From Flavobacterium lacus (GTDB lineage: Bacteria > Bacteroidota > Bacteroidia > Flavobacteriales > Flavobacteriaceae): a DNA stretch of 64,000 nucleotides. Every line of letters starts with the position of its first letter. The first letter of the stretch is position 1. The stretch lies in assembly GCF_003268815.1 (NCBI RefSeq), contig NZ_QLSV01000001.1, positions 1 through 64,000 of the forward strand. The letters are read 5' to 3'. Under the pieces are notes generated by a model. The model did no database searches. It was not told the origin of the DNA and saw nothing but the letters and a program-made list of their open reading frames with translations. Both the position numbers and the translations under genes were made by a program. Below are positions 23,064-52,079 of this stretch, piece by piece.

Positions 23064-23081
23064 ATGACCAAAATCACCGCT
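23045..23081 (+). repeat. attL, 37-bp core repeat
   Basis: Identical to 52043-52079. Begins TTTCTGTATTGGGAAATAA (the mnmE end, Phe-Cys-Ile-Gly-Lys-stop) and continues 18 nt beyond it, ending ATCACCGCT. Confidence 0.95.
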
Positions 23082-29566: not shown

Positions 29567-32011
29567 ATGAAGTTAAAAGGTTACATCGAAAGCGTTAATC
29601 ATGAAGTAAAATCAAACATTCAAAACGATTTCAACTTTAATAATGTCGCATTTAAAGATTTTTCAAGTTTTGATTATATAAATTTTTACTTGATTTATAA
29701 ATACATCTTAAATGAGGATTGTGAAGACTTTTTTTTAAGCATTCCGGAAGATGAGTATAGACCAAATTTCTTTGCGTCGATTTTTCATTCACTTATTTTA
29801 ATAAAATTGTTTCAAAATTATTTTTATCATAAAAATAACAGACCCATATTACAGAAAGATGACTTAGTTTACGGTAAAATTGGAAGAGAAAATAGAATTT
29901 TAACGATAAAAGCAGTTGGGCCAGAGGAATTGAGAGTGAATTACAAGTTTCCAGTTGGTAAAGAAAAACAGGCTGAAAACACCACAATACCCTATAAAAA
30001 TCAAACAAAAATAAACCCAAATCTTAAGAATGGTAGAAATACAGTAAAATATATAAATACATATAAAGAGTTTCTAAGTGAAAATTTTGGTTTAGATTTC
30101 CCTTTTATTACGGATTTCTCAAAGAAAACATTAGTAATTGCGGATACAAAATTTTTTAAAGAAAACGATTCGTTACCTGTCAACTACACAAATAAAAAGG
30201 GTAACAATAAAAACGAACTTCCTTTTTTTAATTATCTGATTGAATGTTGTAACGATTTCAATACTGCAAAAAGTTATCTACTTGACAATGAATATACTTT
30301 TGACGAAATTGTAGTTATTGGTGATAATAAGTATCGTGATTGTTTTATTGATATATTACAAGAATGTAAGTGGAAAGGCAAAGTTAATAATGTAATTATT
30401 ATAGGAACTAACGAACCTTCTTCAGAACATACTTTTAAAAAATGGCTTTGGTCAAATCAAGAAATCAGAATCGCAAATAGCGAAAATTATAAAATTATTA
30501 GTAAAGAAGTAGTAAAATTTGAAGATTTATATAACGACCTAATTAATTTTTCTTCTACAATAGAAAAATATAAAACTGAAAAAAATATTGATCTTTCATT
30601 CGTTCTCAAGTATTTAAACTTCTTTTATAAAATAATTGTAACAGATTCAAATATTTCAAGAGGAATATATCAGGAATATGCAGATAGGCTATTACATTAT
30701 TTTTCCGGAGATAGTTTCGAAGAGGATTTAAAGAATAATTTTTATAAAAATGATATTTATGACCCTTATCAAATAAACGAATGTAAGGGTAATATTATTA
30801 TTCATTTTAAATCTATTGCTACTGTATTACAAGAGAGAAATCCCAAATGGGAAGTTATAGTTCGTAATAGTAGAGAATTGCAAAAATTCTATTTATTGGT
30901 AGAGAAAAAGAGTTATGACATTATTAAAAATCAATTACAAAAAAACCGCATCAGTAATGTCGTATTAGTAAGTGATAAACGAATTGACAATAATATTCTT
31001 TATTGGGATAAATGTTTTAATGATGATTTTAATACAGAAAATAAAATATTTGTAATTCCTTATTTAAACAATTACGATGTTTTAACTAGGTTGTATGAAT
31101 TGAAAGGTAAAACAATTGTTTTGTGCTATGAGAACATTGATGAAATTGCATTTGACAAGCTAATCAAAAAAAAGTTGACAGATGAAGATTCGAGAATTAC
31201 ACATTGTGATAGAAACAGTTTTATAAAAACTAAATATTGTTTAAAACAAGAACAACTTAAACATAATCCATTGGATAGTCTTTTTGATTTAGATTTTAAT
31301 TTACATAATAAATCGAATGCTTCGATTGAAGAATTAGAATTACCAAAAGATAAAATACTTTATGATATCTTATTTTCTGATGGTTCTAATGAAAAATTTG
31401 AATCAACAAAAGGGATTTTCTTGATTGAAAACGATGAGCAAATTAAAACTACTATAGGTGAAATATATGTTGGAGCAAAAATTAGATTCTATCAAAATAA
31501 CAACCCAGAGGTATTTAAAAAAATTCTAAAAATTTTTGATTCTGAAGGATTATTAAAATCGTTTGATACTTATTCCGAAAGTTGGAGAATATCTTTGAAA
31601 AAATTATTGATAAAATACAATAATATAGAAACACTACATTCGAAGATATTTGATAATTCTAATAAAATCAATCTTGTTACTTTTAAAAATTATTTTGATA
31701 ATAATTCGAGTACACGATTTCCAAGGATTAAAGTTTTAAATGCTATAAAAAATCATTGTGAAAAAATTGGTTTAATAAACGAATTGATCGTTACTGATTA
31801 TGATAAATTCGTGGTTTATTCAAAAAAAGACCACTCTATTAGGCAGCAAGCCGGAAGATTGCTAGGGAGCGATTTATTAGACTATATGGCTTCTAATGAA
31901 ACAGAAAAAAGCGATGCTTTGAAAAAACTTAACGATGAAATAATTGAACAGCTAATCAATACGATAGTTGAAAAAGTTATAAAACAAAAAATAATTTCTA
32001 ATGAGGAATAA
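29567..32011 (+). CDS. DrmE-like protein of DISARM
   Basis: 814 aa, cytoplasmic, very rich in Asn/Lys/Ile. No catalytic motif is visible. Size and position (directly before drmA, 11-bp overlap) fit DrmE, the class 2 DISARM protein of unknown function. The chain looks like alternating strand-helix repeats (KTLVIADTKFF, EIVVIGDNKYRDCF, NVVLVSDKRIDNN, GKTIVLCYENIDE), suggesting Rossmann-like units. C-terminal helical region IRQQAGRLLGSDLLDYMAS. Identification rests on context and length more than on motifs. Confidence 0.6.
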   Translation: MKLKGYIESVNHEVKSNIQNDFNFNNVAFKDFSSFDYINFYLIYKYILNEDCEDFFLSIPEDEYRPNFFASIFHSLILIKLFQNYFYHKNNRPILQKDDLVYGKIGRENRILTIKAVGPEELRVNYKFPVGKEKQAENTTIPYKNQTKINPNLKNGRNTVKYINTYKEFLSENFGLDFPFITDFSKKTLVIADTKFFKENDSLPVNYTNKKGNNKNELPFFNYLIECCNDFNTAKSYLLDNEYTFDEIVVIGDNKYRDCFIDILQECKWKGKVNNVIIIGTNEPSSEHTFKKWLWSNQEIRIANSENYKIISKEVVKFEDLYNDLINFSSTIEKYKTEKNIDLSFVLKYLNFFYKIIVTDSNISRGIYQEYADRLLHYFSGDSFEEDLKNNFYKNDIYDPYQINECKGNIIIHFKSIATVLQERNPKWEVIVRNSRELQKFYLLVEKKSYDIIKNQLQKNRISNVVLVSDKRIDNNILYWDKCFNDDFNTENKIFVIPYLNNYDVLTRLYELKGKTIVLCYENIDEIAFDKLIKKKLTDEDSRITHCDRNSFIKTKYCLKQEQLKHNPLDSLFDLDFNLHNKSNASIEELELPKDKILYDILFSDGSNEKFESTKGIFLIENDEQIKTTIGEIYVGAKIRFYQNNNPEVFKKILKIFDSEGLLKSFDTYSESWRISLKKLLIKYNNIETLHSKIFDNSNKINLVTFKNYFDNNSSTRFPRIKVLNAIKNHCEKIGLINELIVTDYDKFVVYSKKDHSIRQQAGRLLGSDLLDYMASNETEKSDALKKLNDEIIEQLINTIVEKVIKQKIISNEE

Positions 32012-35000
32012 GTATAAAGAAGAACCAAGATTAATATTTAGAGATACCATACAAAAGAACTTAATTGGTCCGGGTTCTGATATTTTAATTAGTGATGCCG
32101 AAAATGAAATTATATCAGATTATCCTTTAAGTAGATACTTTTCAGGCATTGTTTTTCCTGAAAAATTTGTTGACCCTATTCAGGATAGTTTTGGATTTGA
32201 TAATGAATCAAATGCTAATGCTGAAACTATTGATGCTGAAAATGAGACTAATGAAGAATTAATTGAATCAAATGATTCTATTCAATCAGAAGATGATAAT
32301 TCAGAAAAAAAAGCTAAAGTAAATAGTGATAATGAATATTCAGAAGCTAATCAATATTTCCCAACAAACTTTGGTTTAACTTTTTGTGTCCCAAATGACC
32401 AAAAAGAAATTACAGTTGAGTTTATATATGCTAAATACAAACAATTAAAACCACTTGAAGCTAAAGTAGAAATAACTAAAGAAGATTTTGAGAAATTCAG
32501 TGGTCATCCATTTAATCCAATAAAACAACATTTAGTGTATGAAGATGGTTTTTTAATATTCAATAGAGAAACATTTGGAAAAAGTGGATTAAATGTTAGA
32601 AACTTAAAGAAAACATTTCAAGAACATGAACAGCAAAAAGAATTAATAGACTCCGTTGGATATAGAAAAGTTGAACTACTACTTGGAAGATTATGGAAAC
32701 GTTTACGAAATGAACAAAAAATAATCAAAATTATACTTGAAGATGAAAATTCAAGTGAAGCTATTCCAATTCCTTTAGAAGTTGAAGAGGAAACAAAAGA
32801 AACAATTACTTGTTTTTATAAAAAAGTATTAGAAACAACTCATGGTAAGTTTATTAAAATTTTACTTGCTAACAGATTAAAACATTCAAAAAAGAAATTT
32901 TCATTCAGTAATGAGAGGTTAAATTCAAAAGCAATGTTTCAAGCACATATCAAAGTAAATGGCACAAAATTTTTACCCTGCAAACAATTTTCTGAAAACA
33001 ACCCTTTTGATAAAGAATTAAATACAATAAACTTTCAATATAGAGAAGAATTTTCTTTTGCTATTGGCCACGGTTGTGCAGTTCATTGGAATGATGATAA
33101 ACAACCTACTGAACTTAATACAACATTCTTGCCAGAAGTTGATATCAAGAGTTATAGTAATGAATTTAAAGAAGATTTTCCAGAAGGTTTAAAGTCAATT
33201 ACACAACTAAAAAAGTTGTCTATTTGGTCTGATTTGAATGATGATGAGATTATAGATCAACTATATTTATTTGCAAAAGAATATCAAAAATGGATTGATA
33301 AACAAATCGCAATTAAAACAACAGATAATTTTCAAAATATTAAAAATAATATTATTGGAAAACAATCAGAAACATTTGAAAGACTTATTAAGAATATAAC
33401 ATTTTTAAAAAATAACGATGATGCATTCAAATCGTTTAAGTTAGCCAATACGGCAATGTTCATTCAAATGTTTGTTTCAAATGAGAAATATTTTGGTAAA
33501 AAGAATGTAGAGCTAACAGAAATAGACGAAAATATAAATTATGACAACTTACGATATTTTAGTGAGAATACAACTTTTAATCCCAAATACAGACCTTTTC
33601 AACTAGCTTTTTTTCTTTTAAACCTTGAATCACTAATCAATCCTGATTCTGAAGACAGAAATAACATAGTTGATTTATTGTGGTTCCCAACTGGTGGTGG
33701 TAAAACGGAAGCATATTTAGCTTTAACTGCTTTTACAATAATTAGTAGAAGAATTTTAAATGAGGACAATGCTGAAGGTGTAGCAGTAATAATGCGTTAC
33801 ACTTTAAGACTTCTAACAGCACAACAGTTTGAACGTGCTACAAAACTAATACTATCATTAGATTTTTTAAGAAAACAATTCAATAATAGGGATGAGTATT
33901 ATTTTGGCAATACTCCTATCTCAATTGGTATGTGGGTTGGTGCTTCATCAACACCTAACTATTTCAAAGATGCATTAAGTATTTATAATAAGATAAATGA
34001 CAATTTAGTAAAAGCAAATTCCAAAAAAAATCACGATTTACAAAAAGTTAATACATTTCCAATTGAAAGTTGTTCATGGTGTGGATGTAAGATTATATCA
34101 AAGAATAAAATCAATTTCTTTGAACAAGGATACCTCGCTACAGCAAATTCATTTAAAATGAAATGTATAAACAATGCTTGTACATTCAGCAATGAATTAC
34201 CAATATATTTTGTAGATGATAAAATTTACCAGACTCCACCTACATTACTTTTTGCTACAGTGGACAAATTTGCGATGATTTCACACAGAGAAGAAGGTCA
34301 TAAACTATTTAATTCTCTTGAAAAACATAAACTCCCTCCCGATTTAATAATTCAAGATGAGTTGCACCTTTTAAGCGGGCCACTCGGTTCCATAACGGGT
34401 ATGTACGAATCTATCGTGGAATTATTATCAACAAAAGGAAATAGAAAGCCTAAAATTATTGCATCAACAGCAACAACAAGAAATACAGCACATCAAGTTG
34501 AAATGTTGTACGGTAATAGACAGCTAAACATATTTCCTCCAATAGGATTAAGTTATAATGACAACTTTTTTTCTTTCGTATCTAAAGATAGTACAAGAAA
34601 GCATATTGGATTTATGCCAACTGGTAAAACAGGACTTAATTCACAAATTCAAATTTTAGGAAACTTATTTATTGCACGTATTGAACTATTCAAATATTTA
34701 ATAGAAAATGAAAAACTAACTGAAGAAGAATGCATTAATAAAATGAACTATTTCTGGACAATCGTTTCTTTTTACAATAGTTTGAGAGATGTTGGTAAAA
34801 TTTATAATAAAGTTCCGGCAGAAATACTTTCTTTAATAAAATTACTTCACAGTAGATACAATATTAGTAGAGATAAATATGCTTTTAATTGGAAAGGATT
34901 ACCATCTCGAACTAAAGAATTAACTAGTCGTATAGAAAGTAATTCAATTAAAAAACTTTTAGATCAATTAGAACAATCATTCAACTTAAATAAATATGAA

Positions 35001-35609
35001 GGAAGAGATTATGTTAATCAAACGGTTGATTTAGTTTTAGCTTCAAATATGTTTTCGGTTGGTATCGATATAAAAAGATTGAATGTGATGTTAATGAATG
35101 GGCAATCTAAAAATGTAGCAGAATACATTCAAGCATCAAGTAGAGTTGGACGTGAGGATATGGGCATTGTAATTAATCTTTTAGATGCAAACCGTTCAAG
35201 AGACAAATCCTATTTTGAAAACTATGTAAGTTTCCATAATGCATACTACAAATATGTAGAACCATTAAGTGTTACACCGTTCACAGAAATTGCAGTTGAT
35301 AAAGTTATGGCAAGTCTCTTAGTTGCTTATATAAGACACAAAAAAGGGTTATATTTAAATAGTCAAGCAAAGGATTTTGAAGGTAATATAGATGAGCTAA
35401 AAACATTTTTATCAGAAAGAATTAAAAACAAGAAGCAACGTGATTATGCAATAAGTAAACTTGATGAGTATGTAAAAAAATGGGTTTCAAAAGAAGAAGG
35501 TCTTACATATAAATTATTAATTCAAAAAATTGCAGACCTAGATGAATGGAGTTTGATGATGTCGATGAGAGAAATTGATACTAATAGTATAATAAAATTA
35601 GCAAATTAA
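32001..35609 (+). CDS. drmA: DISARM helicase DrmA
   Basis: 1202 aa SF2-type helicase. The N-terminal DrmA domain starts RDTIQKNLIGPGSDILI...PLSRYFSGIVFPEK and is followed by an acidic linker (about 65-105). Motor motifs: Walker A FPTGGGKTEAYLALTAF (about 562-578), DEAD-like DELHLLSGPLGS (about 785), SAT-equivalent ASTATTRN, a zinc-finger insert CSWCGC...CINNAC (about 693-730) and motif VI QASSRVGREDMG (about 1043). DrmA with DrmB forms the core that binds and restricts incoming phage DNA in DISARM. Coupled to the neighbours: overlap with the drmE-like gene and zero gap to drmB. Confidence 0.85.
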   Translation: MRNKYKEEPRLIFRDTIQKNLIGPGSDILISDAENEIISDYPLSRYFSGIVFPEKFVDPIQDSFGFDNESNANAETIDAENETNEELIESNDSIQSEDDNSEKKAKVNSDNEYSEANQYFPTNFGLTFCVPNDQKEITVEFIYAKYKQLKPLEAKVEITKEDFEKFSGHPFNPIKQHLVYEDGFLIFNRETFGKSGLNVRNLKKTFQEHEQQKELIDSVGYRKVELLLGRLWKRLRNEQKIIKIILEDENSSEAIPIPLEVEEETKETITCFYKKVLETTHGKFIKILLANRLKHSKKKFSFSNERLNSKAMFQAHIKVNGTKFLPCKQFSENNPFDKELNTINFQYREEFSFAIGHGCAVHWNDDKQPTELNTTFLPEVDIKSYSNEFKEDFPEGLKSITQLKKLSIWSDLNDDEIIDQLYLFAKEYQKWIDKQIAIKTTDNFQNIKNNIIGKQSETFERLIKNITFLKNNDDAFKSFKLANTAMFIQMFVSNEKYFGKKNVELTEIDENINYDNLRYFSENTTFNPKYRPFQLAFFLLNLESLINPDSEDRNNIVDLLWFPTGGGKTEAYLALTAFTIISRRILNEDNAEGVAVIMRYTLRLLTAQQFERATKLILSLDFLRKQFNNRDEYYFGNTPISIGMWVGASSTPNYFKDALSIYNKINDNLVKANSKKNHDLQKVNTFPIESCSWCGCKIISKNKINFFEQGYLATANSFKMKCINNACTFSNELPIYFVDDKIYQTPPTLLFATVDKFAMISHREEGHKLFNSLEKHKLPPDLIIQDELHLLSGPLGSITGMYESIVELLSTKGNRKPKIIASTATTRNTAHQVEMLYGNRQLNIFPPIGLSYNDNFFSFVSKDSTRKHIGFMPTGKTGLNSQIQILGNLFIARIELFKYLIENEKLTEEECINKMNYFWTIVSFYNSLRDVGKIYNKVPAEILSLIKLLHSRYNISRDKYAFNWKGLPSRTKELTSRIESNSIKKLLDQLEQSFNLNKYEGRDYVNQTVDLVLASNMFSVGIDIKRLNVMLMNGQSKNVAEYIQASSRVGREDMGIVINLLDANRSRDKSYFENYVSFHNAYYKYVEPLSVTPFTEIAVDKVMASLLVAYIRHKKGLYLNSQAKDFEGNIDELKTFLSERIKNKKQRDYAISKLDEYVKKWVSKEEGLTYKLLIQKIADLDEWSLMMSMREIDTNSIIKLAN

Positions 35610-37547
35610 ATGGGGAAATACGAACAAATACAAACAAGGAAAACCATAAGTGCTTATGGTGGTGTTGGTTCTATTGTCGAAACTCGAGATGGTTCAATAA
35701 TAATAAAACCATTTGATGAATGGCCATTTTTTATTAGTATTGATGGTGATTTTCAAGAACACAACAATATAGAAGATATACGTTTCAAAAATAGGTTAAG
35801 CAAATATTTTATTAATCTTGAGCGTTTGGTGAAAATTCCTATAAATGATTTAAAAAATGGGTTTCAATTACAGAATGGTGATCAAAATACAATTGGAGCA
35901 TCCTATTTTCCGGAATGGTTTTATTGTAGTAGCTGTAACAAATTTGATAAAATTTCAAATTGGAAATATAATTGGTTAAATAATGTTGACATCAATCATA
36001 AAGATAATTTTTTTCCACCAAAATGTTATAAGTGTTACGCTAGAAACCGCAACAGTAAGAGAAAATTCTTTGATTTAGAACAAGTACGTTTTATTTTAAC
36101 TGCTCCAAATGGAGAGATTGCTGATATACCCTGGGATAAATGGTCAATGTTAAAAAGACAAAAAAGAGATAATTCAAATAATGTAAATAAAGATATTGAT
36201 ACTAACGAAGAAACAATCTCTTTATCAAATGTAGATGTTCCTAGTGATTTAATATTGGAATATCGTACTTCAGATAAATTAGATGATTTAAGTGGTATTA
36301 ACATTATTGCAAAAAATAAGGAGGGTGAAACATTAAATTTTACGACATTATCCGGTTTGTTCAATTTAAGAATTAAAATTCAAGAATTAATTCCAAATGC
36401 TGAAATAAAAGACATCCTCTTTAAACCGGTTATTCGCTCTAGTAATAGTGTCTATTATCCAAATATTTTATCCAGTATTTACATTCCGGCAAAAGACGAA
36501 TTAAATAAATCAAAAATCAAAATGATTAGAGAGTTATTCGATAAAGGTCTTTCGGCTGACATAATTTCGAGTGTTTTATTAGCAACTAATTCATTTACTA
36601 TTGAAGCAAATACTATTCAAAGACTAATCGATAATGACTTTGTTGAAAGAGATACTGAAATTACAAAAAGTGAAAATGAGTATCGTTTTGATGAGTTTAA
36701 ATACATTACTAGTAAAGGTAATGATGAAATAAAAGACTTATTGATATTTGATAAAATAGATTCTAATTATTTTCAGAATGACCTAATAAAATCCATTTTC
36801 AGAATGGATAAAATAAAATTTACATCTGTTCAAACTTCTTACACACGGCAAGAACCTATATCAATTGATACTGCATTAAAAGAAGAAGATATTGAAAGTG
36901 ACAAAGTTGATGCAATACGAAAAAAATATACTTCCAAAAAAGGCTTAACTACAAAGTATCTTCCTGCTATAGAAAGTTTTGGAGAAGGTATCTTTTTTGA
37001 ATTTGATAATGACATTTTAGATAAATGGATAAATTCTAATATATTAATTCTTGATCGAGTTCAACCTATACTAACCAACTATAATAAATTTGATTCTGCA
37101 TTTAATAAGGACATTGAAGTAAATCCTAAATTAATATTGATTCACACATTTTCACATTTAATAATCAAAGAGTTAGAGTATTTATGTGGTTATCCTTCAA
37201 CGTCAATTCAAGAACGAATCTATGTAAGCGAAAACCCAAATATGAATGGTGTATTAATTTATACTATTGCGGGTTCAGAAGGTAGCTATGGTGGTTTAAC
37301 TTCTTTATGTGATGATAATAAGATTGGTAAACTAATTCAATCGGCTATAATGAGAGCTACAGATTGTGCGACTGACCCAATATGTTATCACACAACAGGT
37401 CAAGGTGTTGGAAATCTTAATATTTCAGCATGTTTTAGTTGTTCTTTATTACCTGAAACATCTTGTGAATTATTTAATAGCTTTTTAGATAGAAGATTAT
37501 TAATTGATAATGATTATGGCTATTTTAAACAAATTAGTAATACATAA
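35610..37547 (+). CDS. drmB: DISARM protein DrmB (DUF1998)
   Basis: 645 aa. Begins KYEQIQTRKTISAYGGVGSI, the DrmB-type N-terminus, with a zinc-binding block CSSCNKFDKIS...PPKCYKCYARN (about 109-147). The C-terminal DUF1998 shows HTFSHLIIKELEYLCGYPS (about 510), GVLIYTIAGSEGSYGGLTSL and the Cys-rich end CATDPICY...SACFSCSLLPETSCELFN (about 589-625). It works with DrmA. The start codon follows the drmA stop with no gap. No drmC (phospholipase-D type) gene follows; the next gene starts 156 nt later. Confidence 0.85.
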   Translation: MGKYEQIQTRKTISAYGGVGSIVETRDGSIIIKPFDEWPFFISIDGDFQEHNNIEDIRFKNRLSKYFINLERLVKIPINDLKNGFQLQNGDQNTIGASYFPEWFYCSSCNKFDKISNWKYNWLNNVDINHKDNFFPPKCYKCYARNRNSKRKFFDLEQVRFILTAPNGEIADIPWDKWSMLKRQKRDNSNNVNKDIDTNEETISLSNVDVPSDLILEYRTSDKLDDLSGINIIAKNKEGETLNFTTLSGLFNLRIKIQELIPNAEIKDILFKPVIRSSNSVYYPNILSSIYIPAKDELNKSKIKMIRELFDKGLSADIISSVLLATNSFTIEANTIQRLIDNDFVERDTEITKSENEYRFDEFKYITSKGNDEIKDLLIFDKIDSNYFQNDLIKSIFRMDKIKFTSVQTSYTRQEPISIDTALKEEDIESDKVDAIRKKYTSKKGLTTKYLPAIESFGEGIFFEFDNDILDKWINSNILILDRVQPILTNYNKFDSAFNKDIEVNPKLILIHTFSHLIIKELEYLCGYPSTSIQERIYVSENPNMNGVLIYTIAGSEGSYGGLTSLCDDNKIGKLIQSAIMRATDCATDPICYHTTGQGVGNLNISACFSCSLLPETSCELFNSFLDRRLLIDNDYGYFKQISNT

Positions 37548-37703
37548 AACAAATTAAAAAGAAAATTCTTTCAAAACATGAGTTTCTCTTTTTTACGTTA
37601 GTTTGCTTTTTTATATATTTACACTCTATCATAAAAAACATTCTTTTTACAAAAAAAGTTCAAAAATAAAAAGTAGTTTAAAACTAGTAATGAATCAAGT
37701 TAA

Positions 37704-40526: not shown

Positions 40527-41977
40527 TGAGAGAAGATTGGACAGAATGTTGCTTCGAAGATATATTAGATTACGAACAACCTACAAAATATATAGTAAAT
40601 AGTACCGACTATAATGATGCCTATAAAATGCCTGTTTTAACAGCAGGAAAATCATTTATAAAAGGATATACTAACGAAACAGAAGGTATATTTGAGAATT
40701 TACCGACCATCATTTTTGATGATTTTACCACAGCATCACAATATGTTGATTTTAAATTCAAAGTAAAGTCATCAGCAATGAAAATCTTGGTGCCTACAAG
40801 TAAATTGGTAAATATGAGATTTGCTTTTTATTGTATGCAAGTCAATCAAATAAGGAATGACACTCATAAAAGATATTGGATTTCTGTTTATGCAAAAAAG
40901 AAGTTTTTATTACCATCTTTAGTGGAACAAAAAGCGATTATTTCTAAAATTGAAGAATTATTCAGTGATTTAGACAAAGGTATTGATGACCTTAAAAAAG
41001 CAAAAGATCAATTGGTAATTTATAGACAAGCCGTTTTGAAAAAAGCGTTTGAAGGTGAATTAACCAAAGAATGGAGAGAGAAACAAATTAATTTACCTTC
41101 TGTTGATGAATTAATAAAACAAATCAAAGTAGAACGTGAAAAACACTACAAACAACAAATTGAAGATTGGAAAAAAGAAGTTAAAGTATGGGAGCAAAAC
41201 GGTGAGAAAGGTCTAAAACCTATTAAACCAAAAAGTTTGAAATTAGTAAATTCTTTAAAAGAAGATGATATAAAAAAACTAATATCTATTCCTAAGGTAT
41301 GGAAATATCACTATTTAGCTTATGCTGGAGATCTTGGTAGAGGAAAATCAAAGCATCGTCCAAGGAATGATAAAAGACTTTTTGGAGGTCCCTATCCTTT
41401 CTTTCAAACATCTGAGGTAAAAGCCCAAGAAATTATTAGCTCATACACTCAAACTTATAGTGAATTTGGTTTAAAGCAAAGTAAACTTTGGCCTGCGGGC
41501 ACTCTTTGTATTACTATTGCGGCTAATATTGCTGAAACTGGTTTTTTAGGAATTGACGCCTGTTTTCCTGATAGTATAGTGGGCTATACTCCTTATGAAA
41601 GTATTATTGATATCAAATATATTGATTACTTTTTTCAATCTGCAAAAAGAAGAATTAGTGCATACGCTCCAGCTACAGCTCAAAAAAATATTAATTTGAC
41701 AACACTTGAAAATTTGTTAGTTCCTTACTGTTCAAAAAATGAGCAAGGACAAGTTGTAAAAGAAATAGAATCTCGACTTTCAATTTGTGAAAAAGTTGAA
41801 CAAAGTATAAATGATAGTTTAGAAAAAGCAAAAGCGTTGCGACAAAGCATACTTAAAAAAGCTTTTGAGGGCAAATTGCTTTCTGCTGCAGAAATAGCAA
41901 GATGCAAAAAAGAAACAGATTATGAATCAGCTTCGGTTTTATTAGCAAAAATCAAAGTTGATAAAAAGAATAAATAG
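40526..41977 (+). CDS. hsdS: Type I restriction specificity subunit
   Basis: 483 aa. Two target-recognition domains (about 1-130 and 250-400), each followed by a conserved helical spacer: EQKAIISKIEELFSDLDKGI...RQAVLKKAFEGELT and GQVVKEIESRLSICEKVE...RQSILKKAFEGKLL. These internal repeats are the hallmark of HsdS and set the spacing of a bipartite DNA target. The second target domain begins with the KYHYLAYAGDLGRGKS pattern. Only one hsdS is seen, with no inverted partial copy for shuffling. Confidence 0.95.
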   Translation: MREDWTECCFEDILDYEQPTKYIVNSTDYNDAYKMPVLTAGKSFIKGYTNETEGIFENLPTIIFDDFTTASQYVDFKFKVKSSAMKILVPTSKLVNMRFAFYCMQVNQIRNDTHKRYWISVYAKKKFLLPSLVEQKAIISKIEELFSDLDKGIDDLKKAKDQLVIYRQAVLKKAFEGELTKEWREKQINLPSVDELIKQIKVEREKHYKQQIEDWKKEVKVWEQNGEKGLKPIKPKSLKLVNSLKEDDIKKLISIPKVWKYHYLAYAGDLGRGKSKHRPRNDKRLFGGPYPFFQTSEVKAQEIISSYTQTYSEFGLKQSKLWPAGTLCITIAANIAETGFLGIDACFPDSIVGYTPYESIIDIKYIDYFFQSAKRRISAYAPATAQKNINLTTLENLLVPYCSKNEQGQVVKEIESRLSICEKVEQSINDSLEKAKALRQSILKKAFEGKLLSAAEIARCKKETDYESASVLLAKIKVDKKNK

Positions 41978-41985
41978 TATAATGA

Positions 41986-42564
41986 ATGGCTAAACAGAAA
42001 TTAAAAATAATGGTTTCTTCAACGGTTCATGGATCAGATTCAGATTTGGATCAAATTCATGGTATTTTGAATGGATATGGCTATGAAGTTATCATGTCTA
42101 AGAATGGAACCGTTTATGTACCTATTGGTGTATCAAATGAAGAAGCATGTTTACAAGCTGTAGTAGATTGTGACTTATTTCTTGGTGTGATTTTCCCAAG
42201 ATATGGTTCTGGAATCACACATAAAGAATTTTCAAAAGCAATAGAGATTGATAAACCTAGATGGTTTATTTCCCATCATTTTATTGAGTATACAAGACAA
42301 TTAATGAAACAATTTATGTATGACGCTAATGGTATTAGAAATGATTTTCAAATTAAATATACTCCTGTACTTGATAATATTAAAGTTGTGGATATGTATA
42401 ATGAAGCAATTCAAAATCATCTTGATTCAGATAAAAGAAGATCACATTGGGCACAACCTTTTTTTAAAACATCTGATACATTTGATTTTCTTAAAACACA
42501 GTTTGCTGATATGAACAAAAGAATTATTGAATTAGAAAAACTTAATGATATTGACAATGAGTGA
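41986..42564 (+). CDS. DUF4062 protein
   Basis: 192 aa. The N-terminus KLKIMVSSTVHGSDSDLDQI with NEEACLQAVVDCDLFLGVIFPRYGSG matches DUF4062, a TIR-like/nucleoside-binding fold found in front of many defence and STAND proteins. Here it is free-standing, with a helical C-terminal extension ending ELEKLNDID. It sits between hsdS and the AlbA_2/ATPase gene and overlaps the latter's start by 8 bp, so both are probably made together. Possibly a sensor or regulator of restriction; inference only. Confidence 0.8.
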   Translation: MAKQKLKIMVSSTVHGSDSDLDQIHGILNGYGYEVIMSKNGTVYVPIGVSNEEACLQAVVDCDLFLGVIFPRYGSGITHKEFSKAIEIDKPRWFISHHFIEYTRQLMKQFMYDANGIRNDFQIKYTPVLDNIKVVDMYNEAIQNHLDSDKRRSHWAQPFFKTSDTFDFLKTQFADMNKRIIELEKLNDIDNE

Positions 42565-44059
42565 TGAACTACTTTTAAAAAACCTTATAAAACAAGGCGA
42601 AAGCGAACAGCTCGAATTCTTGGCAGATGTTCGTAAAGATACAATTGCACGTAATCTATGTGCTTTTCTTAATGGAGATGGTGGTCGTGTATTAGTTGGT
42701 GTTTCTGATGAAGGCATGCCAATTGGTATTGAAAACCCTAAACAATATGTTGAGGAATTAAAAATATTTTTATTAGACTCTATTGTGCCAGATGCTCCTG
42801 TTACTATTTCTGTAGAAGAATTAGGTTTCAAACAGTTCATTATGCTTAAAGTTTGGGGTGGTTCTAAACAACCCTATATTTTTGATGGCAATATCTATTT
42901 CCGCAAAGGTGCAAATACACAAAAAGCAACTTCAAAAGAAATTTCTGAACTAATTCATGGTCGTCAATTGTCCGAACAGCATTGGGAAAGACAAATAACT
43001 TTAGGTGTTGAACTAGAAGATTTAGACCAAAAATTAATTGTAGATACTATAGTTGAATCGAGAAAAAACCATAGAAGCAATTTTGAAAACGATGATGTTT
43101 TAGAGTTTCTAAGTCATTATGGTTTATATCTAAATGGTTCTTTTACCAATGCTTGTGTGGTGCTTTTTGGCAAAAAGCCAAGTAAATTCATTCCACAAAT
43201 AAGAGTTCGATTAACAGAATATGCTGATAGTAAAACCGACAATAGTTTAATCAGAGACCAACTTTTTGAAGGTAATATTTTTAGTATTAGAGATGAGTTA
43301 GAAAAGTATGTTAATGGTCTTGGTGTTAGAAGTTCGTTTGATAAAAATCAATGGAAGCGACAAGATTTTACTTTTCCAAGAAAAGCATTGCAAGAAGGTA
43401 TTATTAATGCTTTAATGCATAGAGATTATAGTAGTTTCTCTAGTAGTGTGGCTATTAGTGTGTATCCAGACCGTTTTGTAATTTCAAATAGCGGAAAACT
43501 TCCAAATGATATTGAAATAAAAGATTTAAAAAAGAATCACAGTTCACATCCTGTAAATCCGGATATAGCACATATTGTTTTTTTACGAGGTTTAATCGAT
43601 AAATTAGGAAGAGGTACAATAAAGATTATAGAAGATTGTAAAGATGCAGGTTTAAGAGCACCAGAATGGAAAGAAACTTCTAATGGTGTAACACTTACAT
43701 TCTATGGTCCAAAAAGTTTATCAGAAAGAAAAGAGCGAAATGATGCTGCAAATGATGCTGTAAATGATGCTGTAAGTGATGCTGTAAAAAAGAAAGTTTA
43801 TGATGCTGTAAATGATGCTGTAAATGATACTGCAAGTGATGCTGTAATTAATAGACTAATAAACGAAGTGCTACTGTTAATAGTAGAAGATGGTAAAAGC
43901 TTAAAAGACTTTATGCTTGCTTTTGATGTAGCTAGAGCAACTATGCAAAGAGATATGGCATTATTAAAAGCACATCAATTTGTGGTTTTTGGTGGAGCAG
44001 CAAAATCAGGTGTTTATAGATTAGCACAAGAATTTAAATTAAAATTAGAAATACAATAA
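42557..44059 (+). CDS. AlbA_2 (Schlafen-like) DNA-binding ATPase
   Basis: About 500 aa from MSDELLLKNLIKQGESEQLEF (the ATG at 42545 is possible but adds four residues). AlbA_2 domain first (about 5-130: ESEQLEFLADVRKDTIARNLCAFLNGDGG, NIYFRKGANTQKAT), then a GHKL-type ATP-binding half (ALQEGIINALMHRDYSSFS, SGKLPNDIE, GRGTIKIIEDCKDAGLRAPEW). A linker of DAVN/DAVS units follows, encoded by 12-bp DNA repeats, then a C-terminal winged helix (LKDFMLAFDVARATMQRDMALLKAH). Such proteins are common inside type I RM loci and are thought to regulate; the function is not proven. Confidence 0.85.
   Translation: MSDELLLKNLIKQGESEQLEFLADVRKDTIARNLCAFLNGDGGRVLVGVSDEGMPIGIENPKQYVEELKIFLLDSIVPDAPVTISVEELGFKQFIMLKVWGGSKQPYIFDGNIYFRKGANTQKATSKEISELIHGRQLSEQHWERQITLGVELEDLDQKLIVDTIVESRKNHRSNFENDDVLEFLSHYGLYLNGSFTNACVVLFGKKPSKFIPQIRVRLTEYADSKTDNSLIRDQLFEGNIFSIRDELEKYVNGLGVRSSFDKNQWKRQDFTFPRKALQEGIINALMHRDYSSFSSSVAISVYPDRFVISNSGKLPNDIEIKDLKKNHSSHPVNPDIAHIVFLRGLIDKLGRGTIKIIEDCKDAGLRAPEWKETSNGVTLTFYGPKSLSERKERNDAANDAVNDAVSDAVKKKVYDAVNDAVNDTASDAVINRLINEVLLLIVEDGKSLKDFMLAFDVARATMQRDMALLKAHQFVVFGGAAKSGVYRLAQEFKLKLEIQ
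43742..43849 (+). repeat. 12-bp coding repeats in ATPase linker
   Basis: Nine 12-bp units of GATGCTGTAAAT type in frame (one divergent unit, AAGAAAGTTTAT, in the middle), encoding D-A-V-N/S. Unit changes would keep the frame and alter only linker length. Confidence 0.85.
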
Positions 44060-44064
44060 ATAAA

Positions 44065-45594
44065 ATGACAGATTCAAGTATAATATCAAAAATTTGGAAC
44101 CTAGCTAGTGTATTACGTGATGATGGGGTTGGTTATGGAGATTATCTAGAACAAATTACCTATTTGCTGTTTCTTAAAATGGCAGACGAACTCAACAAAC
44201 CTCCTTATGGTAAAGGACTAGATTTCCCAAGACTAAAAGATGTAGAAGGACATGAAATTGAAGATGCTGAAACTTGCGACTGGGAAACACTTTCTAGCAA
44301 AAGAGGTGCAGAATTAGAATCGTTCTATAGTCAATTACTTAGAAGTCTTTCTACTGAAAAAGGAATGTTAGGTCAAATTTTTACTAAAAGCCAAAATAAA
44401 ATTCAAGATCCATCAAAGTTGTTAAAAGTTATTGATTTAATCAATAAAGAAAACTGGAACTTGATGGGTACTGATATCAAAGGTAAAATTTACGAAGGAT
44501 TATTAGAAAAGAATGCCATTGATAGCAGTGGTAGTTCAGGTGCAGGTCAGTATTTCACACCAAGAGCATTAATAAAAGCGATTGTTGCCTGTATTCAACC
44601 AAAACCTATGAAATCTATTGCAGATCCAGCATGTGGTACTGGAGGCTTCTTTCTGGCGGCTTACGATTGGATAATTACAAACAACAAACTAGACCGTGAT
44701 GAAAAAGCATTTCTTAAAAACGATACTTTTTATGGAAATGAAATTGTTGCCAACACGCGAAGAATGTGTTTAATGAACATGTACTTACATAATATTGGTG
44801 AGATAGATGGCAATACTCCAATAAAATCAACAGATGCTTTAATTTCAGATGATGGATTAAGAGTAGATTATGTTTTGGCAAATCCTCCATTCGGAAAGAA
44901 GAGTAGCATGACTATTACCACTGAAGAAGGAGATGCAGAAAAGCAAGACATGAGTTACAACCGTCAAGACTTTTGGGAAACAACTTCCAATAAGCAGTTG
45001 AACTTTTTGCAACATATTAAAACGATGTTAAGAATTAATGGTGAGGCAGCAGTTGTATTACCAGATAATGTTTTATTTGAAGGTGGTGCAGGCGAAGAAG
45101 TACGTAAACAACTATTAAAGACAACAGAACTACATACTATTTTGAGATTACCTACCGGTATTTTTTATGCACCAGGAGTAAAAGCAAATGTGTTATTTTT
45201 TGATAATAAACCAGCAAGTAAAGAAGCATGGACAAAAGATATTTGGTTCTATGATTACAGAACCAATATTCACCATACACCAAAAAAGCGCACCATGACA
45301 ATGCAGCATTTGGAAGAGTTCATCAAACTTTACAATCCTGGGAATCGTAATAAAAGAGTGGAAACATGGTCTGAAGAAAACGAAGAAGGAAGATGGAGAA
45401 AATACACCTATGATGAAATTATAACGAAAGACAAAACAAGCTTAGATATCTTTTGGATAAAAGACAAGAGCTTAACAGACCTAGACAATTTACCTGATCC
45501 AGATATATTAGCTAATGAAATTATTGAAAATATTGAAGCTGGTTTAAATAGTTTTAGAGAAATTATGGAGACGATAAATGGGAATGATGAGTAA
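44065..45594 (+). CDS. hsdM: Type I restriction methylase subunit
   Basis: 509 aa adenine-N6 methyltransferase. N-terminal HsdM domain (IISKIWNLASVLRDDGVGYGDYLEQI...LLFLKMADE), SAM-binding ADPACGTGGFFLAAYDW (about 185-201), catalytic NPPFGKKSS (about 273) and the C-terminal PTGIFYAPGVKANVLFF. It protects host sites and may be the only DNA methylase of this island. It begins 5 bp after the ATPase gene and ends 12 bp before the mcrB-like gene, so it is part of one run of genes. Confidence 0.96.
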   Translation: MTDSSIISKIWNLASVLRDDGVGYGDYLEQITYLLFLKMADELNKPPYGKGLDFPRLKDVEGHEIEDAETCDWETLSSKRGAELESFYSQLLRSLSTEKGMLGQIFTKSQNKIQDPSKLLKVIDLINKENWNLMGTDIKGKIYEGLLEKNAIDSSGSSGAGQYFTPRALIKAIVACIQPKPMKSIADPACGTGGFFLAAYDWIITNNKLDRDEKAFLKNDTFYGNEIVANTRRMCLMNMYLHNIGEIDGNTPIKSTDALISDDGLRVDYVLANPPFGKKSSMTITTEEGDAEKQDMSYNRQDFWETTSNKQLNFLQHIKTMLRINGEAAVVLPDNVLFEGGAGEEVRKQLLKTTELHTILRLPTGIFYAPGVKANVLFFDNKPASKEAWTKDIWFYDYRTNIHHTPKKRTMTMQHLEEFIKLYNPGNRNKRVETWSEENEEGRWRKYTYDEIITKDKTSLDIFWIKDKSLTDLDNLPDPDILANEIIENIEAGLNSFREIMETINGNDE

Positions 45595-45606
45595 AATGAT
45601 TTATAT

Positions 45607-47721
45607 ATGAATTATTGGCATATACAATTACACCCAGATAATAGGCTTTCTATTGTTGACCTAATTTCTATTCTTAATACAAAAAAAGTAATAGGTTTAG
45701 GAGAGGAATGGAATGATAGAAATAATAATCCTGTCCTAGATCCTCAGTATTTTAAGAAGGATATGAGAATTGGAGATGTAGTAATGGTCAGAGATACTGT
45801 TACACCGGTAGCTTTAGTAAAAATAGAAAGTGATGCATTTATCGAAAAAAATATAGATGAAGATTTCGATTGGTTTAAGTTAAGACGTAAAGTAAGTGTT
45901 TTAAATTTTTTTGAAGATTCTGATAAGAACACACTTGATGAAATATTAAAAAAATATGGTAATAAACATATACAAGCTCCTGGTACATTAACTTTTTGTC
46001 AAGGTGATAATGCAACAAATAAGTTTATTAAAGTTTGGCATAAAAAATCAATTTATAAAAACATTATGGAAAGTTTAAAATTATCTCAAGAAAGACAAGA
46101 CCAGATAAAACTACTTTGGACTAAATTCAAATCTGATACTAAAAAGGGCGAGGAAAAATATCGTACTGACGAGATAGCAAAACTATTAAATGATTGGGAC
46201 ATCTATAGAGTTAAAATAATTAATGATACACTTACATTAGAGGATTTTACAAATATTTTAAATAATCCAACTGCAACAATGCCTGGTGGGTATTTGTGTA
46301 ATTTTTTGGAAAGAACAACAAAAACTGTTTTTGGTTCTTCAAAACCGGGTAATGCAGAAAATTTTGAAGTAAAACTTAACAATGACAATGACACCTATTT
46401 TATTAAAAGTGAAAAGAACCATAAAGCAACAAAGGTAGAAGCGGAAACATATTTTAATACCAATATCAAAGTATTACTAAAGAAAATTATTGAAGAAAAA
46501 GACCCGTTAAAAAAAATTGAAATTATTGACACTGCAAATTATAGTGCTAAGCAAATTCTAATGAAAGTTGCTGTTTTAGAGCATGTATCTAGTTTTCTTT
46601 CAATATATTCTACAGATGTTTTAAATAGTTTATATGAAGAATTTATTGAAGGTGATGCTACTGGAAATCTAGATAAATCACATCAGATTATGACAGTGAG
46701 TAAAAAGTTACTTGAAATTCAAGAAGACAACAAATATGAACTGACTTTATTGGCTTGGTTTCTTTGGCAGTATTCAACAGCAAATGCTATTGCAGATAAG
46801 GATAATCCAAACGTTATTATGTATGGCCCGCCTGGTACTGGGAAAACTTATGCAGTAATAAATAGTCTTGATTTTGTATGTCAAGGAGATAGTTCGCGAT
46901 TTGAAATACTTCAATTCCATCCTTCATTTACATATGAAGATTTCATAGAAGGAATTAAACCAAAAGGAGTATCTAAAGATGGAAATATTCGATTTGAATT
47001 AGTAAATGGTGTTTTCAAAAACTTCTGTATTAAAGCCAAAAAAAATCCAAATAAAGAATATTATTTTGTAGTAGATGAGATTAATCGTGCCAATCTTTCC
47101 TCAGTATTTGGTGAAACATTATCACTTTTAGAAAGAGACTATAGACATGATGTTTCCATTGCTGATAATACAAAAAATATTATTAGAACTCAATATTCAT
47201 CATTGATTGACGAATTGATTAGTGAGAATCCTCTAAAAAAGGACTTAGCATATGCTATTGATAACAATGTAGTTAAATTTGGTGTACCTAGCAATGTTTT
47301 TTTTATTGGTATGATGAACGATGTAGATAAAAGCATTGATGCTTTTGATTTAGCACTTCGCAGAAGATTCAAATGGATTAGAAAAGATTGTGATTATGAT
47401 GTAGTAGAGGAAGAAACTAAATTCAAAAACAAAGAAGATTTCAATAATATAGTCTATTACAAAAAAGCTTGTGAACGCTTGAATAATTACATTTCATATG
47501 ATTTAGGATTAGGAAAGTCTTATGAGTTTGGGCATTCTTTCTTTATGAAAATGAAAGATATTGCAAAAAGAAAAGAAATTACTCAAAATAATATGGAGGT
47601 ACTTTTTAATCTTTATTTACGACCTACATTAAAAGAATATTTGAGAGCTGTATTTGCCGAAAGCGAATTGGATAATAAATTAAATGATGCATTAGCAAAT
47701 TTTAAAGCTGCCATAAATTAA
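45607..47721 (+). CDS. mcrB: McrB-like AAA+ restriction protein
   Basis: 704 aa. C-terminal AAA+/MoxR-like GTPase domain: Walker A MYGPPGTGKTYAVIN (about 405), FHPSFTYEDFIEG, Walker B FVVDEINRANLSSVFGE (about 484-500), the McrB NxxD signature GMMNDVDKSIDAFD and arginine finger LRRRFKW. The N-terminal 1-115 (YWHIQLHPDN...RIGDVVMVRDTVTPVALVKIES) looks like an EVE/PUA-type modified-base reader. A helical middle domain follows. With McrC it would cut DNA with modified bases. Confidence 0.88.
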   Translation: MNYWHIQLHPDNRLSIVDLISILNTKKVIGLGEEWNDRNNNPVLDPQYFKKDMRIGDVVMVRDTVTPVALVKIESDAFIEKNIDEDFDWFKLRRKVSVLNFFEDSDKNTLDEILKKYGNKHIQAPGTLTFCQGDNATNKFIKVWHKKSIYKNIMESLKLSQERQDQIKLLWTKFKSDTKKGEEKYRTDEIAKLLNDWDIYRVKIINDTLTLEDFTNILNNPTATMPGGYLCNFLERTTKTVFGSSKPGNAENFEVKLNNDNDTYFIKSEKNHKATKVEAETYFNTNIKVLLKKIIEEKDPLKKIEIIDTANYSAKQILMKVAVLEHVSSFLSIYSTDVLNSLYEEFIEGDATGNLDKSHQIMTVSKKLLEIQEDNKYELTLLAWFLWQYSTANAIADKDNPNVIMYGPPGTGKTYAVINSLDFVCQGDSSRFEILQFHPSFTYEDFIEGIKPKGVSKDGNIRFELVNGVFKNFCIKAKKNPNKEYYFVVDEINRANLSSVFGETLSLLERDYRHDVSIADNTKNIIRTQYSSLIDELISENPLKKDLAYAIDNNVVKFGVPSNVFFIGMMNDVDKSIDAFDLALRRRFKWIRKDCDYDVVEEETKFKNKEDFNNIVYYKKACERLNNYISYDLGLGKSYEFGHSFFMKMKDIAKRKEITQNNMEVLFNLYLRPTLKEYLRAVFAESELDNKLNDALANFKAAIN

Positions 47722-47727
47722 AAAATA

Positions 47728-49125
47728 ATGAAAATTACAATACCTGTAAATCATAATTATTACGAAGAAGCACCAATACATGAATCAGTATTAGGTGTTG
47801 CTTTTGGCGTAAATAAATCAGGTATTAAAAATGTACAGAATCTATTTTCTTCACTTCATGAATTAAAACTTGGATCCGAACAACTAAAGCAGATTAAATT
47901 ATTTAGTTTTAAAAAAAGCAGTTTTTTTGAACCAGATGAAGAAAGGTTAATTCTGAAATTATATTCAAAAGAAAAACTTGAAAAGGAAAAACAATATTTT
48001 GTTCAAACTGGTTTATATGCTGGAACCTTATTTTATAAAGGTTGTAAAATAAACATTACTTCAAATCATGGAGATGTTTTTTTAAAAAGGATGCTCAATT
48101 TCGTAAATGATATTTATATAGATAATGAGCAAGTAAAGGCAAAAAAAGACGAAACTGTAAATCAATTTTTATTCATTATAGCCTACCTTTTTATTCAATC
48201 ACTTGAAAAAGCTGCTGTTTTAGGTTTGCCACAAGAATATAAAACGCAAAGAGAACGTAGTCATAAAGTAAGAGGTGCAATAGATTTCAATGCCTACTTA
48301 AAACAAGATATACCATTTCAAGGTAAGTTAACTTCTGTATTCAAAGAGCGTAGCTATGTCCAAGAAATTATAGACGTACTATATTTAACTTTAAGAAAAT
48401 TGGAATCACTTTTTGGAAAAGAGATTCACAATAGACTTCTAGGAGTAAATCAATTATTAAAACAGAATTATTCAGGTAGATATGTTACTAATGATACAAT
48501 TCGTAAAGCAAAACTACATCCATCAATTAATAATCCATTATACAGTTCATTTAAGAAAGTATTGGACTATGCTGAAATAATATTATTGGAAAATGATTTG
48601 ATGTCTGATGATTCGAATAGTAATATGTCAACTACTGGTTATTTGTTTGACATAGCAGAGCTTTTTGAATTGTATATTGAAAAACTACTTAATAAAAATT
48701 TTAATGAGTGGTCTGTAAATGCTCAACAACAGATAGATATTTATAAACATAAATTTTATATGCGTTCAATGTTTCCGGATATTGTAATGAAAAACAGAGA
48801 TAATAATAAAATTGCAGTTTTTGATGCAAAGTTTAAAAAAATGGAAATGATTAATAAAGATGTTGATAGGAATGATTTACATCAAATCCATTCCTATTCT
48901 GGATATTATAAAACTGAAATAATTACCGCTGGATTACTATTTCCTTTGTCAAATGAAATCAATATTGAAAAATCACATTCTGACTCACTTTATGGATTAG
49001 TTGGAAACAAAATAAAATTTTTAATTGATGGTGTATATATAAATGATAAACTATCTATGAAAGAACTTATACAAAAAGAAGAAGAATTTATTGAGCGAAT
49101 AGGTGCTGCATTAAACAATTACTAA
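47728..49125 (+). CDS. mcrC: McrC-like restriction endonuclease subunit
   Basis: 465 aa. N-terminal half fits the McrB-binding domain of McrC; the C-terminal nuclease has the PD-(D/E)xK motif in MFPDIVMKNRDNNKIAVFDAKFKK (about 348-371: Asp, then Asp-Ala-Lys) and DLHQIHSYSGYYKTE. Joins McrB hexamers and cleaves. It starts 6 bp after the mcrB-like gene. Confidence 0.88.
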   Translation: MKITIPVNHNYYEEAPIHESVLGVAFGVNKSGIKNVQNLFSSLHELKLGSEQLKQIKLFSFKKSSFFEPDEERLILKLYSKEKLEKEKQYFVQTGLYAGTLFYKGCKINITSNHGDVFLKRMLNFVNDIYIDNEQVKAKKDETVNQFLFIIAYLFIQSLEKAAVLGLPQEYKTQRERSHKVRGAIDFNAYLKQDIPFQGKLTSVFKERSYVQEIIDVLYLTLRKLESLFGKEIHNRLLGVNQLLKQNYSGRYVTNDTIRKAKLHPSINNPLYSSFKKVLDYAEIILLENDLMSDDSNSNMSTTGYLFDIAELFELYIEKLLNKNFNEWSVNAQQQIDIYKHKFYMRSMFPDIVMKNRDNNKIAVFDAKFKKMEMINKDVDRNDLHQIHSYSGYYKTEIITAGLLFPLSNEINIEKSHSDSLYGLVGNKIKFLIDGVYINDKLSMKELIQKEEEFIERIGAALNNY

Positions 49126-49275
49126 ATATAATCTCATTACCTCATTGAAATGCACAAAATCCCTATTTAGTCCAAGTATTCCTTAACTCACGTCTTTGTT
49201 TGCTTCATTTAGTTACTTTCATTTTTTAATCAACATTTTGTATCTTTAATTCAGTTTTTTAAAGAGGTGTTTTTT

Positions 49276-50547: not shown

Positions 50548-50598
50548 TTAGTTAATACGGTCATAAGACCTTATATTTACCGCATAAATGCATTGATT

Positions 50599-52042: not shown

Positions 52043-52079
52043 TTTCTGTATTGGGAAATAAATGACCAAAATCACCGCT
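52043..52079 (+). repeat. attR, 37-bp core repeat
   Basis: Identical to attL (23045-23081); it holds a second copy of the mnmE 3' end (FCIGK-stop) with no gene before it. Host sequence resumes at 52080. Confidence 0.95.

What the first reader, a model, noticed from the sequence alone, without database searches (positions are those of the whole stretch)
29567..49125. Composite defence island: DISARM-like core without methylase or drmC, fused in layout to type I RM and McrBC
Seen: a drmE-like gene, drmA (Walker A, DELH, SSRVGRE) and drmB (DUF1998) with overlaps or no gap, then hsdR-hsdS-DUF4062-AlbA_2 ATPase-hsdM-mcrB-mcrC with gaps of 15 bp or less. Known: published DISARM has a methylase (drmMI or drmMII), drmA, drmB, drmC, plus drmD (class 1) or drmE (class 2). 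Here drmC and any DISARM methylase are missing. Inference: a class 2 5mC methylase would make host DNA a McrBC target, so losing it is logical. The HsdM adenine mark, of the same chemistry as DrmMI, may tell DrmAB what is self. That would be a new hybrid restriction system.
Basis: partly seen in the sequence, partly recalled or inferred. Interest (0 to 1): 0.88.

Follow-up and report, generated by a model that had tools for sequence, protein, structure and literature searches.

The report
Methylase-free three-gene DISARM on mobile element
A bacterial mobile DNA element carries a stripped-down relative of the DISARM anti-virus system that lacks the usual self-marking enzyme, sitting beside two ordinary DNA-cutting defences with which it shares a neighbourhood rather than a proven mechanism.

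Summary
The first is a divergent DrmE; drmA and drmB are clear; a type I RM module and mcrBC follow; no DISARM methylase or drmC is present. All lie in a ~29-kb integrative element bounded by exact 37-bp repeats at the mnmE 3' end. The hybrid reading (HsdM marks self for DrmAB) is not supported. One of the two closest relatives has drmE-drmA-drmB alone, with no methylase gene of four Pfam families within 100 kb; the other has methylases and an McrB-like gene upstream. In Bacteroidota and allies, 0 of 24 cassettes with adequate flanks have a C5 methylase nearby, against 22 of 23 on the other side of the DrmA tree; the window's genome has none. Type I RM genes or remnants lie near 8 of 24, not clearly more than 3 of 23. 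Published work already notes McrBC beside DISARM-like and type I RM genes. New, as far as my searches show: a widespread methylase-free, mostly drmC-free class-2 lineage, and a prediction that DrmE is an SF2-helicase fold lacking the ATP-binding lysine. Best mechanism: DNA-structure sensing by autoinhibited DrmAB. No function was tested.

The parts
23045..23081 (.). attL, 37-bp direct repeat overlapping the end of mnmE
   Evidence: identical to 52043-52079
23891..25033 (+). tyrosine integrase of the element
   Evidence: Pfam Phage_integrase 3.4e-22
27060..29213 (+). primase/VapE-like replication protein of the element
   Evidence: Pfam VapE-like 4.6e-26, CHC2 zinc finger 2.3e-9
29567..32011 (+). 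drmE (divergent); predicted SF2-helicase fold without a P-loop lysine
   Evidence: DrmE_C in 29 of 55 homologues, not in this protein; model pLDDT 87; fold matches; motif check
32001..35609 (+). drmA, YprA-type helicase; Walker A and DELH intact; acidic trigger-loop-like stretch near residues 54-117
35610..37547 (+). drmB (MZB/DUF1998)
37704..40526 (+). hsdR of a type I RM system
40526..41977 (+). hsdS
41986..42564 (+). DUF4062 protein of the type I module
42545..44059 (+). SLFN_AlbA_2 protein of the type I module
44065..45594 (+). hsdM, N6-adenine methylase
45607..47721 (+). mcrB-like GTPase gene
47728..49125 (+). mcrC
   Evidence: Pfam PF10117 4.5e-33
52043..52079 (.). attR, 37-bp direct repeat

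Best explanation
The locus is an integrative element carrying three separable defence modules. The first, drmE-drmA-drmB, belongs to a class-2-like DISARM lineage of Bacteroidota and allies that as a rule has neither the C5 methylase nor drmC. Shown by sequence: the cassette usually ends at drmB, recurs with varied neighbours, keeps intact DrmA helicase motifs and an acidic stretch where Serratia DrmA has its autoinhibitory trigger loop (weak alignment). Inferred: DrmAB is held off until a 5'-overhang or single-stranded phage DNA end displaces that loop, so self is avoided by DNA structure rather than by a mark made by the operon; DrmE, a predicted helicase-like protein without an ATP-binding lysine, acts as a non-motor scaffold or DNA sensor for DrmAB. 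hsdRSM and mcrBC act independently as sequence-specific and modification-dependent restriction, giving layered protection.
For: The cassette occurs without type I RM genes or remnants in G022, in the Haliscomenobacter plasmid and in 16 of 24 loci with adequate flanks. C5 methylase near 0 of 24 cassettes against 22 of 23 on the other side of the DrmA tree (tree: 0 of 52 against 29 of 36 rows). 12 of 21 cassette genomes searched, the window's included, have no Pfam C5 methylase match, and one more only a hit under the cut-off. A same-strand ORF (110 aa or more) starts within 60 bp of drmB in 5 of 41 loci, of five different lengths. DrmA WFPTGGGKTE and QDELHL in 52 of 52 rows of this side; acidic stretch present. 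Bravo 2022 (PMC9142583, passages): DrmC dispensable, trigger loop restricts DrmAB to ssDNA/5' overhang. DrmE fold: judged by entry titles, the 50 listed rows for the window DrmE and for a Lachnospiraceae DrmE beside a C5 methylase are SF2-type helicases or translocases, chain identity inferred in multi-protein entries. hsd module separate; hsdR and hsdM GC 0.34-0.35 against drmEAB 0.25-0.28.
Against: The trigger-loop alignment is weak (13.6 bits). N6_Mtase-family genes exist somewhere in 21 of 21 cassette genomes, so marking in trans is not excluded, although in one (G562) the only hit is weak, 7.8e-14. Type I RM genes or remnants lie near 8 of 24 cassettes, against 3 of 23 on the other side (Fisher p 0.17), so some coupling cannot be excluded. 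The sister G291 has methylases upstream. Bravo 2022 reports that DrmAB ATPase is reduced by 5mC, so methylation can matter. drmE is split in two ORFs in five loci of this side (L038, L075, L076, L077, L079). Nothing here shows that the cassette is expressed or protects.
Confidence: 0.6

Rival explanations
1. Hybrid restriction system: HsdM's adenine mark tells DrmAB what is self, so drmEAB and hsdRSM work as one system with McrBC.
For: One strand, 156 bp between modules. Type I RM genes or remnants near 8 of 24 cassettes. drmB and mcrB are separated by 13 bp in Hymenobacter L065.
Against: No methylase gene of four Pfam families near the cassette in G022, nor in 17 to 19 of 24 loci. In L044, L065 and L069 only hsdR fragments lie beside the cassette and no HsdM was found in the fetched flanks. 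hsd module found without drm. Type I proximity is not a clear excess over the C5-methylase side (p 0.17).
Confidence: 0.08
2. Co-selected layered defence: three independent systems whose joint carriage gives synergy, as in published defence superoperons, without a shared self mark.
For: RM or McrBC neighbours in L025, L049, L065, L068, L073 and G291. Bell 2024 (PMC11090510, passages) reports McrBC branches linked to type I RM and to a DISARM-like system.
Against: Neighbours differ between loci and are absent in most; shared mobility alone could explain clustering.
Confidence: 0.22
3. Decayed class-2 DISARM, or one relying on a host methylase and nuclease in trans.
For: Two of five class-2 parts are missing; PLDc_2 genes exist elsewhere in the genome; Bravo 2022 suggests host PLD nucleases may stand in. 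drmE is split in five loci of this side.
Against: DrmA motifs are intact in 52 of 52 rows of this side, the three genes are open in the window and its two closest relatives, and the window's genome and 11 others of 21 have no C5 methylase match.
Confidence: 0.1

Closest known systems
DISARM class 2 (DrmE, DrmA, DrmB, DrmC, DrmMII)
   Same: drmE-drmA-drmB in the order seen in the Firmicutes loci here; DrmA/DrmB families; DrmE_C in the DrmE family
   Different: no C5 methylase and no drmC; DrmE and DrmA divergent; other side of the DrmA tree
DISARM-like cassettes beside McrBC and type I RM (Bell 2024, PMC11090510; Bell 2025, PMC12458937)
   Same: a DISARM-like, YprA-containing cassette beside McrBC; McrBC beside type I RM
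   Different: the passages read do not describe a drmE-drmA-drmB, methylase-free cassette; figures and supplements were not seen
ARMADA (PMC12458937)
   Same: YprA-family helicase core
   Different: no BrxHII-like helicase or PglX-like methylase; DUF1998 in a separate gene, as in DISARM

Membership tests
DISARM class 2 | DrmA helicase | tested here: met
   PADLOC 2.4e-182; NCBIfam DrmAS 800 bits, under its cut-off of 950
DISARM class 2 | DrmB | tested here: met
   NCBIfam DrmB_fam 306 bits, cut-off 240
DISARM class 2 | DrmE | tested here: met
   by family only: DrmE_C in 29 of 55 homologues; the window protein itself hits no DrmE model
DISARM class 2 | DrmMII C5 methylase | tested here: not met
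   none in the locus and no PF00145 match in the whole genome
DISARM class 2 | DrmC PLD nuclease | tested here: not met
   no PLDc_2 match in the window; genes after drmB are hsd and mcr
DISARM class 1 | DrmD and DrmMI | tested here: not met
   the genes from 27060 to 49125 are assigned to other families; HsdM scores as a type I methylase
[quoted passage not shown]
   neither found among the element's scanned genes
Type I restriction-modification | HsdR, HsdM and HsdS | tested here: met
Type IV McrBC | McrB GTPase and McrC | tested here: met
Integrative element | integrase and flanking att direct repeats | tested here: met
   an empty site was not found in 60 genomes searched
SF2 helicase (DrmE) | two RecA-like lobes | tested here: met
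   predicted models only; best VIA-align 2 Z 11.3 (289 residues, rmsd 8.8) for the window DrmE, 12.3 (285 residues, 4.9) for a Lachnospiraceae DrmE
SF2 helicase (DrmE) | Walker A GK[ST] | tested here: not met
   absent around window residues 45-80 in 55 of 55; one off-site [AG]x4GK[ST] in L107

The most novel reading that the evidence does not exclude
A third class of DISARM: DrmE-DrmA-DrmB alone, tuned to work without operon-borne methylation. Self is spared purely by DNA-end structure through the DrmA trigger loop, and the base-contact position equivalent to Serratia V1296 has drifted (Ile in 37 of 51, against 3 of 36 on the other side). DrmE is a helicase-like non-motor subunit standing where class 1 has the DrmD helicase (DrmD's nature recalled).
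Probability: 0.45. Interest if true: 0.68.

Novelty: new variant of a known kind. Interest (0 to 1): 0.5.

Why it matters
How DISARM spares its host, and whether that needs methylation, is unsettled. A large natural lineage lacking the methylase makes it directly testable: one three-gene cassette in a methylase-free laboratory strain would show whether DNA-end structure is enough. A helicase-like DrmE without an ATP-binding lysine would give a structural hypothesis for a subunit whose interplay with DrmAB Bravo 2022 leaves to future studies (passages), and would make class 2 (DrmE) look more like class 1 (DrmD helicase, recalled).

Tried and rejected
DrmE models on the 814-aa protein: no hit at the thresholds used. 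A genome-contig scan with DrmE alone confirmed nothing; DrmA worked. Whole-genome absence of HsdM as a test of the hybrid idea: uninformative, since PF02384 matches in 21 of 21 genomes. DrmC as the gene after drmB in nine loci of the C5 side: that 565-591-aa gene resembles by profile the L032 gene that Pfam reads as NERD nuclease plus helicase, not a PLD nuclease. Consensus promoter and terminator scans: no excess over shuffles. A Bacteroidetes-type promoter pattern (recalled): none in the four gaps scanned. An empty attachment site: not found; matches cover one side or the other, one (G026) crossing the join by 11 bases only. DrmE in phages: no match. DrmA in viral contigs: 13 loci at 31-34% identity, not followed. 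The L009 protein sharing one stretch with DrmE (E 5.2e-19) stands before a P-loop ATPase gene (by inspection) and was not pursued. The DrmE model outside residues 10-560 was hardly tested by the fold comparison.

L028 (G291) is labelled 'none' in the tree because its methylases lie in the separate piece L029; labels of short contigs are likewise incomplete. L049 has HsdM at the locus edge and L068 just beyond it (placed by contig coordinates), so 'any methylase' is 5 of 24 by the rule and 7 of 24 with them. HsdR profile hits under 40 bits (L058 in the 24) were not counted; the three hits on the other side (L089, L110, L111) were not checked with Pfam. Fisher p-values ignore relatedness. The tree is a quick search with a midpoint root. 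In some searches only two candidates per genome were scored.
Full report
WHAT IS THERE. All ORFs in the finding exist at the stated places and strand. drmA and drmB are unambiguous. HsdR, HsdS, HsdM, a DUF4062 protein, a SLFN_AlbA_2 protein, an McrB-like GTPase and McrC follow. The modules differ in base composition (drmEAB 0.25-0.28 GC; hsdR and hsdM 0.34-0.35; hsdS, DUF4062 and AlbA_2 0.29-0.32; mcrBC 0.27-0.29), and drmB and hsdR are 156 bp apart.

THE FIRST GENE IS A DIVERGENT DrmE. The 814-aa protein matches no DrmE model in PADLOC, Pfam or NCBIfam. Homologues do: Pfam DrmE_C hits the Haliscomenobacter plasmid protein at 9.8e-11, over the cut-off, and 29 of 55 aligned homologues at E<=0.001. 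An iterated profile from the window protein also picks up the gene between the C5 methylase and drmA in most Firmicutes loci, but not in L026 or L092.

IT LIES IN AN INTEGRATIVE ELEMENT. A 37-bp direct repeat at 23045-23081 (over the mnmE end) recurs exactly at 52043-52079. A tyrosine integrase, two HTH_17 genes (excisionase-like, recalled) and a primase/VapE-like gene lie inside. No empty site was found in 60 genomes searched.

THE CASSETTE IS A UNIT OF ITS OWN. The two closest relatives in the DrmA tree are G022 and G291. In G022 (76%, 88%, 92% identity) drmE-drmA-drmB lies between unrelated chromosomal genes; the gene after drmB reads as an arginyl-tRNA synthetase (by inspection, not a call). 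G022's matches to four Pfam methylase families are all more than 100 kb away. G291 (80%, 88%, 89%) has upstream, on the same strand, an N6/N4 methylase, a C5 methylase and an McrB-like protein, the nearest methylase 5-6 kb off. A Haliscomenobacter plasmid has the cassette with no RM gene annotated within 11 kb; a Hymenobacter plasmid has it just after hsdM-hsdS-hsdR. In a class sample, strong DrmA matches (E<1e-100) occur in 7 of 395 genomes and close HsdR relatives (E<1e-80) in 24 of 395; only the window's own genome is in both lists. The order hsdR-hsdS-DUF4062-AlbA_2-hsdM occurs without drm genes in the fetched stretch in 2 of 6 HsdR relatives examined, L143 (with one small ORF between hsdR and hsdS) and L144.

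A METHYLASE-FREE LINEAGE. A scan with a DrmA alignment gave 80 loci (the best of 574 confirmed places). In a tree of 88 DrmA, one side (36 rows, mostly Firmicutes) has a C5 methylase in the locus in 29; the other (52 rows, mostly Bacteroidota and allies, the window included) in 0; of these 52, four have HsdM, one MmeI, one N6N4 and 46 none in the locus. With at least 5 kb upstream and 2 kb downstream: C5 in 0 of 24 against 22 of 23 (Fisher 1.6e-12, relatedness ignored); any methylase 5 of 24 against 22 of 23, or 7 of 24 when HsdM at or just past the locus edge in L049 and L068 is added. Of 21 cassette genomes searched whole, 12 have no C5 methylase match and one more only a sub-threshold one. 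A same-strand ORF of 110 aa or more starts within 60 bp of drmB in 5 of 41 loci on this side, with five different lengths. PLD-type genes by a strict motif occur in the flanks of two loci of this side (L069, L080), both confirmed by Pfam. drmE is split in two ORFs in L038, L075, L076, L077 and L079.

Type I RM genes or remnants lie in or at the edge of the flanks of 8 of 24 such cassettes: L025, L049, L068, L073 and L082 with HsdM (L068's just outside), and L044, L065 and L069 as hsdR fragments with no HsdM found in the flanks. The other side has 3 of 23 by the same profile (p 0.17). In L065 mcrB and mcrC follow drmB by 13 bp. N6_Mtase-family genes exist somewhere in all 21 cassette genomes (one weak hit only in G562), so marking in trans cannot be excluded.

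MECHANISM. Bravo 2022 (PMC9142583; passages) reports that DrmC is dispensable, that a trigger loop (residues 176-232) limits Serratia DrmAB to ssDNA and 5' overhangs, and that 5mC lowers its ATPase. In the window's DrmA the Walker A and DELH motifs are intact, and an acidic stretch (61 residues, 19 D/E, 3 K/R) stands where the profile alignment, weakly (13.6 bits), places that loop; mostly acidic stretches of 24-75 residues stand there across the 88 DrmA. Serratia V1296, in SMREVE, aligns with I1192; this position is Ile in 37 and Val in 14 of 51 on the methylase-free side, and Ile in 3 and Val in 33 of 36 on the other, which phylogeny alone could explain.

DrmE STRUCTURE. Models of the window DrmE (pLDDT 87) and of a Lachnospiraceae DrmE beside a C5 methylase (pLDDT 83) were compared with the PDB. 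Judged by entry titles, the 50 listed rows in each are SF2-type helicases or translocases, the chain being inferred in spliceosome and other multi-protein entries (best Z 11.3 and 12.3; rank 50 at 9.6 and 11.1; the tool gives 7-8 as a typical best Z for models without a clear match). Single lobes fit better (UvsW: Z 10.5, 165 residues, 3.7 A; ISWI: Z 9.9, 184 residues, 4.5 A). Foldseek TM-scores over the whole chain are low (about 0.2), so the lobes' arrangement is unsure. No GK[ST] stands around the expected strand-loop-helix in 55 of 55 sequences; that place was chosen from the order of strands and helices. A catalytically dead helicase-like subunit is therefore the working idea; it is a prediction.

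PRIOR ART. Bell 2024 (PMC11090510, passages) states that McrBC branches are associated with type I RM and with a DISARM-like system; Bell 2025 (PMC12458937, introduction, parts 1-2 of 3 of the results, figure legends, passages) repeats the McrBC link and speaks of many uncharacterised DISARM-like classes. PADLOC's paper (PMC9252829, passages) requires DrmA, B, C, E and MII for type II DISARM, which this locus fails. Searches, judged by titles and starts of abstracts and with capped lists in 81 and 125, showed no paper on this lineage; Ofir 2018 is not held and supplements were not read, so a mention elsewhere is possible.

VERDICT. Observation confirmed; the hybrid idea is not supported; what remains is a new variant of DISARM that is worth a bench test.

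Noticed in passing
23045-52079: A 29-kb integrative element at the 3' end of mnmE bounded by exact 37-bp repeats.
   Followed up: yes
50593-51717: Fic/DOC protein with DUF4172 at the right end of the element; its neighbour 49267-50400 has no Pfam match.
   Followed up: no
52145-52870: Bacteriorhodopsin-like protein gene just outside the element.
   Followed up: no
L143:1787-10081 and L144: hsdR-hsdS-DUF4062-SLFN_AlbA_2-hsdM recurs as a type I RM variant with two accessory genes.
   Followed up: partly
L083, L085, L098, L100-L103, L106, L109 after drmB: A 565-591-aa gene follows drmB in nine loci of the C5-methylase side; by profile it resembles the NERD-plus-helicase gene of L032.
   Followed up: partly
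L009:13196-17275: A 920-aa protein shares a stretch with DrmE residues 425-544 and stands before a P-loop ATPase gene (by inspection).
   Followed up: no
L026:8261-17342: Lactiplantibacillus plasmid with C5 methylase, an 801-aa gene, drmA and drmB; the next annotated gene is on the other strand.
   Followed up: partly
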